Of a stretch of 64,000 nucleotides of DNA, positions 6,120 to 54,635 are shown piece by piece. The DNA is taken from assembly GCA_003279615.1 (NCBI GenBank), contig QCHM01000004.1, positions 62,001 through 126,000 of the forward strand, read 5' to 3'. Position 1 is the stretch's first letter. The number at the start of each line of letters is the position of its first letter. A model generated the notes under the pieces. The model saw only the letters and a list, made by a program, of their open reading frames with translations, searched no databases and was not told the DNA's origin. A program made the position numbers and the translations under genes. The stretch is from Prochlorococcus sp. AG-402-B19 (lineage in GTDB: Bacteria; Cyanobacteriota; Cyanobacteriia; PCC-6307; Cyanobiaceae).

Positions 6120-6192
6120 TAGCCCCAAGGGGATTCGAACCCCTGTCGCCTCCGTGAAAGGGAGGTGTCCTAGGCCTCTAGACGATGGGGCC
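6120..6192 (-). tRNA. tRNA-Glu (anticodon TTC)
   Basis: On the minus strand the sequence folds into a full cloverleaf of 73 bases. The acceptor stem GGCCCCA pairs with TGGGGCT (one G-U at the end), the discriminator is A, the anticodon stem CCTCC/GGAGG encloses the loop CTTTCAC with anticodon TTC, and the T arm contains GGTTCGAATCC. CCA is not encoded. In cyanobacteria charged tRNA-Glu also supplies 5-aminolevulinate for chlorophyll synthesis. Confidence 0.97.
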
Positions 6193-6241: not shown

Positions 6242-7399
6242 TTACGGGCCAGACTTGCCACTCGTCAAGACTTCTTGATCCTTCTTTTGACCTCGCCATA
6301 CAGGAACGGTGAAATAGAAGCATGCACCTTCTGTTGGTTTAGAAACAACCCAGATCTTTCCTCCATGGACTTCAACAATTCTTCTACAAACTGAAAGACC
6401 AATGCCAAAGCCGATTGTCTCTTCGGAAGTTTGTGGAAGTCTTACTCTATCGACAAATATTCTTTGTTGTTCTTCTGGAGGTATACCAGGCCCATTATCT
6501 CGAACTATCACTTCAACCCATTGGTTTGTTCTGTGAAGCATTGTTATAAAAATCTCACCTTCGTCCTCGGAAAATTTCAAAGCATTTTCTATGAGATTCA
6601 ACAAAACTTGCATCATTCTTCTTTGATCTGCAAAAACAGAGGGTAAATCAGCTGGTATATCAGTATTTATTTTTATTTTGCGGTTAAGCCATAGTTTTTC
6701 TAGTTCAAGAATCGCTTCGGCGGATATATTTGCAAGATCAATTTTTTGAGGATTAAATAAAGTTTCCCAGCGCGTACTCCCAACTTCTAATAAGTCCTTC
6801 GAAAGCAACTCAATTTCTTCTAGTCTTCTCTTAAGGACCTCTTGAAATTTAGTCATACTGATTTGACCTAGCTTTTGACTTTGAAGAGCTAAACCAGCTG
6901 CAGTTAAAGGAGTTCTCAATTCATGAGCAACCATTCTTAGTAGACTTTCTTGAGAATGTATTTTATTGGTAAGTGTCTCGTTTTCTTGACGAAGAACTAG
7001 AAGATCATCCTCTAGAAGAAGTTCTTTTTGTGTTTGGTTTGATTCGATTGTTTTAGGTCTAAGACTTACTCCGATGCCATTAATTAGCCTTTCATGCTGC
7101 CATCTTGGAAGCCAGGTTTTAACTTGCTCAAGTATCGAACTTCCAGCAAAGATTTGCTTAGGATACGGTTCTAGTTTTATCAAAGCAGGTATTGCTACTA
7201 ATCTGTATAACTCAAGTAATTCTGGGTTCTCACATGGATCTGACAATTCAAGAGTAACGGTAAAGCCACAATCTTCATCTTCTAAATAATCAATTAACGA
7301 GCGAATATCTCCCCTAGAGAGATGGTGACGAGATGCCACTAGCAACAGCTTTAACTGCCGTCTATCGTTAGCTTCGGCACTATTCACAGTGACGAGCAA
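6242..7399 (-). CDS. sasA: Adaptive-response sensory histidine kinase SasA
   Basis: SasA binds KaiC through an N-terminal KaiB-like thioredoxin fold and passes the circadian signal to the response regulator RpaA. The 385 residues show the KaiB-like domain at about 15-105, a short coiled linker, a HisKA dimerisation domain with the phosphorylation box [13 protein letters not shown], and a HATPase domain with the N box ([12 protein letters not shown]), DNGPGIP and [18 protein letters not shown]. The start is uncertain: the longest frame uses TTG at 7399, and a GTG four codons later (7387) is equally possible. Neither has an obvious ribosome-binding site. KaiABC genes are not in this window. Confidence 0.93.
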
Positions 7400-49635: not shown

Positions 49636-49866
49636 ATGATTACAGCCAATGAAGTCACTCTACTAATTAAGCAATCTATTCCTGATGCTCAAATTGATGT
49701 GAAAGATTTAGGAGGAGGGGATCATCTTGAAGTAAATGTAGTATCTGCAAAATTCAATGGGTTAACTCTTGTACAGCAACACCAACTTGTTTATGGTGCA
49801 TTAAAAAATGAATTGAAAACTGAAACAATTCATGCTCTCGCTCTGACAACTTCAACTCCTCATTAA
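49636..49866 (+). CDS. BolA-family protein
   Basis: The 76-residue protein has the compact BolA fold pattern (VKDLGGGDHLEVNVVSAKF, then QQHQLVYGALKNEL with the conserved histidine-containing region). BolA proteins partner with monothiol glutaredoxins to bind a [2Fe-2S] cluster. The gene for that partner starts 10 bases downstream. The ATG start is clear. Confidence 0.93.
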   Translation: MITANEVTLLIKQSIPDAQIDVKDLGGGDHLEVNVVSAKFNGLTLVQQHQLVYGALKNELKTETIHALALTTSTPH

Positions 49867-49876
49867 ATTTTCCATC

Positions 49877-50200
49877 ATGGATTCCAACACTCGTTCCAAA
49901 ATTGAACTTTTAATCAATTCGAAACCAATATTTGTTTTTATGAAAGGTAATAAGTTGATGCCTCAGTGCGGTTTTTCCAATAATGTTGTTCAAATTCTCA
50001 ATTCATTGGGAATGACCTTTGAGACTTTTGATGTGCTTTCGGATATGGAAATACGGGAAGGGATAAAGGAGTATTCAAATTGGCCGACAATACCCCAAGT
50101 TTATGTAAAAGGAGAATTTATTGGCGGATCCGATATTTTGATAAGCATGTATAACTCTGGTGAATTGAAGGAAAAGCTTGAAATAGCACTAGCTTCATAA
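49877..50200 (+). CDS. grxD: Monothiol glutaredoxin (CGFS type)
   Basis: The 107-residue protein has the CGFS active site (C31 in MPQCGFSNNVVQIL) and glutathione-binding segments WPTIPQVYVKGEFIGG and SDI. CGFS glutaredoxins carry and transfer iron-sulfur clusters rather than reduce disulfides. Pairing with the bolA-like gene immediately upstream is a known functional link. It converges on the next gene with a 23-base gap. Confidence 0.96.
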   Translation: MDSNTRSKIELLINSKPIFVFMKGNKLMPQCGFSNNVVQILNSLGMTFETFDVLSDMEIREGIKEYSNWPTIPQVYVKGEFIGGSDILISMYNSGELKEKLEIALAS

Positions 50201-50223: not shown

Positions 50224-50490
50224 TTACGTTTCTCTTTGGAAAAATAGGTTATTAATATCACCATCTGGACCAATAAAGCTTGAGGGATCCATGATCCATC
50301 GATCAATTAAGGCCTCTAATTTCTCTTGATCTCGAGAACCTAACCTATTGCAATTCCTTAAAGAATGCAGATACCCATCTGCATAGATTCTCAGCTCAGA
50401 GGGACTGTGATAACGACTAGTCAGCTCTTGACAGGCATCACAAATTGATTGGAAGTGTTTTATGGCTTCTGGAGCATCAAAAGATGTCAT
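50224..50490 (-). CDS. Conserved cyanobacterial protein, DUF6761-like
   Basis: The 88-residue soluble protein (IKHFQSICDACQELTSRYHSP, then LRIYADGYLHSLRN) looks like a short conserved cyanobacterial family I associate with DUF6761. It has two cysteines three apart (CDAC) and another in RNCNR. Function is unknown. It diverges from the response regulator gene. Confidence 0.75.
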   Translation of the reverse strand: MTSFDAPEAIKHFQSICDACQELTSRYHSPSELRIYADGYLHSLRNCNRLGSRDQEKLEALIDRWIMDPSSFIGPDGDINNLFFQRET

Positions 50491-50578
50491 GGTTTGCTAA
50501 GACACTGACTATTCTTGGTAGTCCGTGAACAGTTTGCTTTAGTATTCCATCTAGTCTAAGGGTCTACTTTTCTGGCTT

Positions 50579-51343
50579 GTGACATTAACACCTGCAGATC
50601 AGCTTGCTACTGAGCAAATTCAAGGATCTCCTTCAGGTTCTTCTTCTATTCAAGCAACCACGCAATCACCTTCTAAGGTGCTTGTTGTAGAGCCACATCC
50701 AACCCTCAGAACTGTTTTGGTTCAGAGGCTAAGGCAGGATGGTCAGTTGGCCGCAGCAGTAAGTTCTGCTGAAGAGGCAGTGGACCTTTGTCGGGATCAA
50801 TCACCGGATTTATTAGTTAGTGCTGAGTTGTTAGAAAAAAGTTCAGCCCTACGACTTGCACAACAATTGGGGTGTTCAGTTATTGTGCTTACCGCTCGAA
50901 CAGGCGTTGAGCCCGTTGTAGGTCTTTTAGATGACGGAGCAGATGATGTTTTAAGAAAACCATTTGGCTTAGAAGAATTAGCTGCAAGATGCAGGACTTT
51001 GCTTAAAAGAGGAAGAATTGGTTTACAGGAACGAGTTGCGGTAGGTCCTTTGGAAGTTCACCTTCTTCTCAGGCAGGTCACCTTGAGAGAGAAACCAGTA
51101 GAACTAAGTCCACGAGAATTTGCTTTGTTGTGTGCTTTGTTGATGCCCCCTGGGATGGTAAGGAGCCGTCATGAACTTTTACGAATGGCTTGGCCTCCAT
51201 TTAGTGGTGGTCCTCGGTCAGTTGATACTCAGGTTTTAACGCTTAGGAGAAAATTAGAGCAAGCAGGCCTTGGCGATGGAGGAGGAATAACAACTGTTCG
51301 CCAACAGGGATATAGGTTTAGCCTTGATAACTTGCCTTCATAG
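50579..51343 (+). CDS. OmpR-type DNA-binding regulator with atypical receiver
   Basis: The 254-residue protein has an unstructured N-terminal tail (1-32), a receiver-like domain (33-145) and a winged-helix DNA-binding domain (about 155-250, with SVDTQVLTLRRKLEQAGL and TTVRQQGYRF). The receiver lacks key residues. The usual acidic pair is E38-P39, the phospho-accepting aspartate position is A82 (in PDLLVSAELLEK), and about seven residues are missing after it. The conserved threonine (T105) and lysine (K127) remain. Phosphorylation by a kinase is therefore unlikely. The start is GTG. The base composition is richer in GC than its neighbours. Confidence 0.9.
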   Translation: MTLTPADQLATEQIQGSPSGSSSIQATTQSPSKVLVVEPHPTLRTVLVQRLRQDGQLAAAVSSAEEAVDLCRDQSPDLLVSAELLEKSSALRLAQQLGCSVIVLTARTGVEPVVGLLDDGADDVLRKPFGLEELAARCRTLLKRGRIGLQERVAVGPLEVHLLLRQVTLREKPVELSPREFALLCALLMPPGMVRSRHELLRMAWPPFSGGPRSVDTQVLTLRRKLEQAGLGDGGGITTVRQQGYRFSLDNLPS

Positions 51344-54563: not shown

Positions 54564-54635
54564 GGGTCGCTAGCTCAGTGGTAGAGCATCCGGCTTTTAA
54601 CCGGCTGGTCCTGAGTTCGAATCTCAGGCGACCCA
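54564..54635 (+). tRNA. tRNA-Lys (anticodon TTT)
   Basis: The 72-base sequence folds into a cloverleaf: acceptor GGGTCGC pairs with GCGACCC, the D arm holds AGCTCAGTGGTAGAGC, the anticodon stem CCGGC/GCCGG encloses CTTTTAA with anticodon TTT, and the T arm has GAGTTCGAATCTC. The discriminator is A; CCA is not encoded. Confidence 0.97.

What the first reader, a model, noticed from the sequence alone, without database searches (positions are those of the whole stretch)
50579..51343. Response regulator with a receiver that cannot be phosphorylated at the usual site
Aligned by eye with PhoB (E9, D10, D53, T83, K105), this OmpR-type regulator has E38-P39 for the acidic pair and A82 for the phospho-accepting aspartate. 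The spacing from the acidic pair to that position (44) is exactly that of PhoB, so the missing aspartate is not an alignment slip. About seven residues are missing between position 82 and the conserved T105, while the T-to-K spacing (22) is normal. Receivers like this usually act without a kinase, through dimerisation, redox or ligand binding. In a genome with very few regulators, a kinase-free one would be notable.
Basis: partly seen in the sequence, partly recalled or inferred. Interest (0 to 1): 0.6.

Follow-up and report, generated by a model that had tools for sequence, protein, structure and literature searches.

The report
Kinase-blind gene regulator of cyanobacteria
A gene switch of tiny ocean cyanobacteria has lost, in every relative checked in its family, the chemical handle that such switches normally use, yet it is strongly preserved, and across cyanobacteria it tends to come and go with a disabled-looking sensor protein, which suggests the pair may signal by touch rather than by phosphate.

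Summary
Window 50579-51343 (+) encodes an OmpR/PhoB-type regulator whose receiver lacks the second acidic residue (P39), the phospho-acceptor (A82) and the switch tyrosine (V124), while T105 and K127 remain. In 78 non-redundant Cyanobiaceae rows position 82 is A72/T4/S2, never D, yet the receiver is under strong purifying selection. It is the Cyanobiaceae member of a regulator found in 136 of 146 cyanobacterial genomes, often divergent from a DUF6761 gene and near bolA-grx4. Outside the family 64 of 79 keep the aspartate but nearly all have lost the second acid; aspartate changes map to at least six events. So this is an old, stepwise pseudo-receiver, not a local oddity. 'Kinase-free' needs a qualification: a HisKA protein with an eroded ATP site, encoded elsewhere, is present or absent together with the regulator (135 both, 7 neither, 4 discordant of 146; about two independent co-losses). 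I propose non-phosphorylating control by docking to this pseudo-kinase; thiol redox and simple abundance control are live rivals. Nothing was tested biochemically. New variant of a known kind (pseudo-receiver regulators).

The parts
50579..51343 (+). Pseudo-receiver OmpR/PhoB-type regulator, 254 aa, GTG start
   Evidence: a GTGAC start at the same place is visible in many family orthologues
50678..50989 (+). Receiver domain (aa 34-137): E38, P39, A82, E83, T105, V124, K127; four-residue deletion in alpha-3
51092..51319 (+). Winged-helix DNA-binding domain (aa 172-247); predicted recognition helix aa 212-228, mean conservation 1.00 in 57 thinned family rows
50491..50578 (.). Divergent intergenic region shared with the DUF6761 gene; holds a small inverted repeat at 50507-50523 (GACTA...TAGTC), function unknown
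50224..50490 (-). DUF6761 protein, 88 aa, divergently transcribed; present in 86 of 88 Cyanobiaceae loci
49877..50200 (+). Grx4-family monothiol glutaredoxin, conserved neighbour (83 of 88 Cyanobiaceae loci)
49636..49866 (+). BolA-like protein, conserved neighbour (83 of 88 Cyanobiaceae loci)

Best explanation
The protein is a DNA-binding regulator whose receiver is a true pseudo-receiver: it keeps the fold, T105 and K127 but cannot be phosphorylated at the conserved aspartate (strong inference from sequence; about 0.92 for this part alone). It descends from a phylum-wide cyanobacterial regulator that first lost the second metal-binding acid and later, in several lineages, the aspartate; the Cyanobiaceae form also lost the Y-T coupling tyrosine. 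Its activity is set without phosphoryl transfer, by protein contact: the strongly conserved alpha-1 face of the receiver docks on the HisKA dimer of a soluble pseudo-kinase (own genome, contig C1 79764-81170, outside the window) whose histidine is kept but whose ATP-binding motifs are gone, and this contact gates dimerisation or DNA binding. Shown by computation: residue losses, purifying selection, gene-neighbourhood conservation, pseudo-kinase erosion, presence/absence association. Inferred: docking, gating and direction of control.
For: Position 82 never D in 78 family rows; K-3 V in 78 of 78, D+4 acidic in 77 of 78. Receiver pN/pS 0.023, DNA-binding domain 0.020 within the genus. Alpha-1, the helix that docks histidine kinases in ordinary response regulators (recalled), is the best-conserved receiver helix: mean 0.93 in the family, 0.92 outside. 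One genome (G381) has both strongly diverged. HATPase_c scores nothing to 17 bits in pseudo-kinase members against 104.5 in SasA (in one search, 4 of 9 members match, best E 0.0019); N, G1 and G2 boxes absent by eye in 30 plus 14 aligned members, including lineages whose regulator keeps Asp. The other two HisKA sensors found in this genome are an NblS relative and a SasA-type kinase; their pairing with RpaB and RpaA is recalled.
Against: The co-occurrence rests on about two independent joint losses (one genus of family f16; one genome of f31); four genomes are discordant, all drafts with 110 to 1150 contigs. No unrelated HisKA gene was run through the same 146 genomes as a control, so losses in those lineages may be coincidental. 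The two genes are not neighbours in this genome. The bit-score correlation (Spearman 0.52, 112 genomes) is not corrected for phylogeny or model bias. Alpha-1 conservation could reflect packing. Cysteine and glutaredoxin evidence points to redox instead. No interaction or structure of a complex was computed.
Confidence: 0.4

Rival explanations
1. Thiol redox switch: cysteines 71, 99, 138 and 185 set the oligomeric state, reduced by thioredoxin or glutaredoxin, so that photosynthetic redox state controls DNA binding.
For: C71 and C185 in 78 of 78, C138 in 75 and C99 in 72 of 78 Cyanobiaceae rows; among the four commonest residues printed for the 79 outside rows at these columns there is a single Cys. 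Neighbours are a monothiol glutaredoxin and BolA. Rre1, RpaA and RpaB of Synechocystis change oligomeric state with thiol redox (PMC9321951, passages). Foldseek lists a structure titled as a streptococcal redox sensor evolved from response regulators, and RitR mutants.
Against: The cysteines are absent in orthologues that share the bolA-grx4 neighbourhood, so neighbourhood and cysteines do not track each other. Cys in helices may simply pack. No disulfide geometry was measured.
Confidence: 0.22
2. Constitutively active dimer controlled only by its amount, perhaps with autoregulation through the divergent promoter.
For: A conserved divergent promoter with a small inverted repeat and a near-invariant DNA-binding domain. 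The 2025 review lists expression control of a constitutively active protein as one route for pseudo-receivers (PMC12632262).
Against: It does not explain conserved alpha-1 or the association with the pseudo-kinase. A related promoter repeat of Cyanobium-like genomes is nearly unique in those genomes, so no regulon or autoregulation is shown.
Confidence: 0.25
3. The divergently encoded DUF6761 protein is the direct partner or antagonist.
For: Divergent DUF6761 in 86 of 88 Cyanobiaceae loci and in 38 of 83 further loci (80 class loci plus L038, L199, L239).
Against: No DUF6761 was found beside 44 of those 83 loci, among them all from families f13, f26, f23 and f4, with flanks of about 1.5 kb only. 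It may be a shared promoter and nothing more.
Confidence: 0.08
4. Phosphorylated at another residue (for example E83, or Ser/Thr), so still kinase-controlled.
For: E83 is invariant in 78 of 78; T105 and K127 are kept.
Against: P39 removes the direct metal ligand (role of that position from PMC12632262) and V124 removes the usual read-out; outside the family position 83 is mostly S, A or T.
Confidence: 0.04

Closest known systems
Pseudo-receiver (PsR) / aspartate-less receiver regulators: ChxR, HP1043, RitR
   Same: OmpR/PhoB architecture, receiver fold without the phospho-aspartate; RitR mutants and 2hqr, titled an atypical orphan regulator (HP1043 by recall), are among the Foldseek matches
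   Different: Here it is family-wide in Cyanobiaceae, descends from orthologues that mostly keep the Asp, and co-occurs with a pseudo-kinase. ChxR was not among the matches shown; its nature is from papers
NblR of Synechococcus elongatus
   Same: Cyanobacterial OmpR-type regulator reported to need no phosphorylation (PMC12632262)
   Different: Different family: 75.4 bits against the NblR cut-off of 300
RpaA / RpaB / PhoB
   Same: Same domain architecture; PhoB (115.7) and RpaB (93) are among its best-scoring curated models
   Different: Far below their cut-offs (296.2 and 330); two RpaB-model and one further OmpR-type regulator are separate genes here, all with the Asp
DivL, pseudo-histidine kinase of Caulobacterales and Rhizobiales
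   Same: A histidine-kinase relative that regulates rather than phosphorylates, within a response-regulator circuit (search listing only; details recalled)
   Different: DivL acts on a kinase in a circuit with phosphorylatable receivers; here the proposed partner is itself a pseudo-receiver

Membership tests
OmpR/PhoB response regulators | N-terminal receiver fold | tested here: met
   PF00072 47.5 bits over 30.2; model pLDDT 87.8, Foldseek OmpR/PhoB matches
OmpR/PhoB response regulators | C-terminal winged helix | tested here: met
   PF00486 57.4 bits over 26.2
Canonical phospho-receiver | Two metal-binding acids | tested here: not met
   E38 kept, P39 in place of the second; family P74 A4 of 78
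Canonical phospho-receiver | Phospho-acceptor Asp | tested here: not met
   A72 T4 S2 of 78
Canonical phospho-receiver | Conserved Thr/Ser and Lys | tested here: met
   T77 S1; K78 of 78
Canonical phospho-receiver | Aromatic residue at K-3 (Y-T coupling) | tested here: not met
   V in 78 of 78; Y in 79 of 79 outside the family
[quoted passage not shown]
   Lacks two of five (second acid, Asp); definition read
NblR, RpaB, PhoB equivalogs | Score over NCBIfam cut-off | tested here: not met
   75.4/300, 93/330, 115.7/296.2
Pseudo-histidine kinase (proposed partner) | HisKA with phospho-accepting His | tested here: met
   HisKA hit in 9 of 9 members; His column invariant in A4
Pseudo-histidine kinase (proposed partner) | ATP-binding N, G1, G2 motifs missing | tested here: met
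   Alignments to SasA and NblS by eye; HATPase_c 0-17 bits against 104.5 in SasA
Pseudo-histidine kinase (proposed partner) | Binds the regulator without phosphoryl transfer | not testable with these tools
   Needs binding assays

The most novel reading that the evidence does not exclude
Cyanobacteria carry an ancient, nearly universal 'pseudo two-component system': a HisKA protein that cannot bind ATP and a regulator whose receiver has been losing its phosphorylation chemistry step by step, still working as a sensor-regulator pair through docking alone and completed in Cyanobiaceae by loss of Asp, second acid and switch tyrosine.
Probability: 0.3. Interest if true: 0.85.

Novelty: new variant of a known kind. 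Interest (0 to 1): 0.6.

Why it matters
How bacterial pseudo-receivers are switched on and off is called a mystery in a 2025 review (PMC12632262, abstract). This regulator gives a natural series: orthologues with the full active site (family f13), with Asp but no second acid (most families), with A, S, E or N at the Asp, and the Cyanobiaceae end state, all with a traceable candidate partner. It lies in some of the most streamlined free-living phototrophs, where only five response-regulator loci were found in this genome, and is retained in 193 of 196 near-complete family genomes searched.

Tried and rejected
The single named-genome scan used patterns shared by all OmpR-type regulators and brought mainly paralogues; L199 (Nostoc) and L239 (Synechococcus) were the clear orthologues, so most organisms in this report are unnamed group codes. 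A viral-contig scan found no relative; a phage-record search gave only matches under 60% identity. Promoter repeat as regulon marker: in six Cyanobium-like genomes ('Cyanobium-like' is my guess from genome size) exact copies were confined to the regulator locus, so dropped. PMT9312_0717 (PMC6365647) was considered as this gene; it lies near a DedA gene, which I did not see near this locus, so identity is neither shown nor excluded. Pseudogene: rejected by pN/pS and by 97-99% identity within the genus. A phosphorylatable Asp elsewhere in the pocket: rejected. Co-degeneration (kinase catalytic wherever the Asp is kept) was tested and failed: the HisKA protein is already eroded in f13, whose regulator has the full active site.

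Rows dropped: L077-L079 (truncated or interrupted; L077 has an in-frame stop in an 84%-complete genome) from the family counts; 84 loci gave 78 non-redundant rows with the window. Outside the family I took 80 of the 119 matches that passed and dropped truncated L194 from column counts (79 left); the element table also drops L193 (78 left) and thins the genus (57 family rows). The tree used 18 family rows, 79 outside rows and 3 paralogues with the active-site columns removed; 44 of 96 inner branches are poorly supported.

Literature: ten searches showed no paper that I recognised as being on this regulator, on DUF6761 or on this pseudo-kinase; only open-licence PMC text was searched, by title and abstract listing. 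Papers seen: PMC12632262 outline, abstract, sections 4, 5, 6, 7, 19 and passages; PMC6365647, PMC4395418, PMC9321951, PMC2663038, PMC13421787, PMC4633512 passages only; the rest search listings.

Full report
What is there. The ORF at 50579-51343 (+) encodes 254 aa with receiver and winged-helix domains over their Pfam cut-offs. The window is G000:C4:62001-126000 of a 1.55 Mb, 87.5% complete draft. The genome shows five response-regulator loci: two RpaB-model proteins, a further OmpR-type protein (RpaA by recall), one without a match at that limit in NCBIfam (LuxR-type by recall) and this one.

The active site. E38 is kept, the second acid is P39, the acceptor is A82, T105 and K127 are kept. 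Among 78 non-redundant Cyanobiaceae rows: 38 E61/D17, 39 P74/A4, 82 A72/T4/S2, 83 E78, 105 T77/S1, 127 K78. Position 124 (K-3), the Y-T coupling site described in PMC12632262, is V in 78 of 78; outside the family it is Y in 79 of 79. Pro at D+4 is E67/D10/A1 in the family and P in 52 of 79 outside. Spacing from 82 to 105 is 23 in all 78, against 27 in 74 of 79 outside: a four-residue deletion in the short alpha-3 of the AlphaFold model (residues 90-97; mean pLDDT 87.8, pTM 0.59). The model's best Foldseek matches are OmpR/PhoB regulators, with the atypical RitR and 2hqr further down; sequence alone gives the same architecture.

Selection. Within the genus pN/pS is 0.023 for the receiver and 0.020 for the DNA-binding domain (21 comparisons with the window). 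Alpha-1 is the best-conserved receiver helix in the family and outside it (0.93 and 0.92); the recognition helix averages 1.00 in the family. The gene has 45.9% GC in a 33.8% GC window with GC3 of 29.1%, which I read as protein conservation, not as recent transfer.

Distribution and orthology. A match at E<=1e-40 is in 275 of 300 family genomes and 193 of 196 near-complete ones. With a six-row profile, 136 of 146 class genomes have a match at E<=1e-60. In the ten genomes under that limit the best matches score about 190-208 bits, the level of paralogues, against 386 and 396 bits for two genomes with a clear orthologue. Gene order supports orthology: DUF6761 divergent in 86 of 88 family loci, grx4 and bolA in 83 of 88 (several misses are short or contig-end loci); outside the family bolA-grx4-DUF6761-regulator is complete in 15 of 80 loci and DUF6761 is next door in 36 of 80; a profile found 38 divergent in 83 loci.

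History. Outside the family position 82 is D64, S7, E5, A2, N1 of 79; the second acid is G57, S13, D4, T3, A1, P1. The four with D at both sites are family f13. A tree without the active-site columns needs at least six D/non-D changes and puts Cyanobiaceae on a very long stem (3.58 changes per column) joined to the long branch L193, a join flagged as unsafe. I read this as second acid first, then several losses of Asp, then tyrosine loss in Cyanobiaceae; order and count rest on a weakly supported tree.

A possible partner. HisKA finds three loci in the genome: an NblS relative (916 bits, cut-off 1000), a SasA-type kinase (539.8, cut-off 342) with a KaiB domain, and a 469-aa protein without HATPase_c at E<=10. 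In three closed genomes of the genus HATPase_c finds five loci each, with open frames near 388, 690, 376, 669 and 635 aa; the last two have the sizes of a gyrase-type protein and HSP90 (guess, not tested), so about three catalytic kinases face four canonical regulators. The 469-aa protein has orthologues across cyanobacteria: His kept, N, G1 and G2 motifs gone, in the 30 members and the 14 (by eye). Nine members scanned: HisKA in 9, HATPase_c in 4 with best E 0.0019. Over the same 146 genomes, regulator at E<=1e-60 and this protein at E<=1e-30 (my cut; G360 and G379 have only 1e-16 matches): both 135; neither 7 (G051, G348, G360, G372, G389, G396, all f16/g16, and G379, f31); regulator only 1 (G373); HisKA protein only 3 (G038, G056, G443). 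Fisher p 3.9e-9 ignores kinship; the joint absences amount to about two events. I first expected the kinase to be intact where the Asp is kept; it is not, not even in f13. So erosion of the kinase is older than loss of the Asp, or the ATP site was never canonical.

Mechanism. Most likely the receiver no longer uses phosphate and the DNA-binding form is set by contact, with the pseudo-kinase as leading candidate. Docking through alpha-1 is the usual kinase contact (recalled) and alpha-1 is what selection preserves here. Redox control is the main rival: four cysteines conserved in the family are nearly absent outside, the neighbours are BolA and a monothiol glutaredoxin, and other cyanobacterial regulators respond to thiols (PMC9321951). 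Control by amount alone cannot be excluded. None of this was tested at the bench.

Verdict. Real, conserved, a new variant of a known kind.

Noticed in passing
own genome contig C1 79764-81170 (L279, outside the window): HisKA protein of 469 aa with unrecognisable ATPase domain; orthologues in 138 of 146 cyanobacterial genomes by my cut of E<=1e-30. No Pfam domain over its cut-off in its N-terminal half.
   Followed up: partly
window 50507-50523: Inverted repeat GACTA...TAGTC in the divergent promoter; the only match in the window at up to 2 mismatches (expected 0.06). Some larger-genome relatives have a different repeat (AAGGCATCGCCTGNTACC) in the same place.
   Followed up: partly
window 50224-50490: DUF6761 protein, divergent partner of the regulator over much of the phylum; no paper in the library names it.
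   Followed up: partly
window 50579-51343, regulator residues 71, 99, 138, 185: Four cysteines conserved in Cyanobiaceae (78, 72, 75 and 78 of 78) and almost absent outside.
   Followed up: partly
genomes of f16/g16 and G379 (f31): Cyanobacterial lineages that lack both the regulator and the HisKA protein; a genome of the same family f16 (G381) has both strongly diverged.
   Followed up: partly
orthologues in family f12 (L154, L176, L178, L179, L197): Glu at the phospho-acceptor site, as in phosphomimetic mutants: natural variants that might be locked on.
   Followed up: no
window 6242-7399 (-): SasA-type clock output kinase with KaiB-like domain.
   Followed up: no
window 54564-54635 (+) and 6120-6192 (-): Two tRNA genes, the only Rfam matches at gathering score.
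   Followed up: no
own genome contig C1 35565-36278 (L001): A second regulator scoring over the RpaB equivalog cut-off (355 bits, cut-off 330) besides the RpaB-like protein of L003.
   Followed up: no
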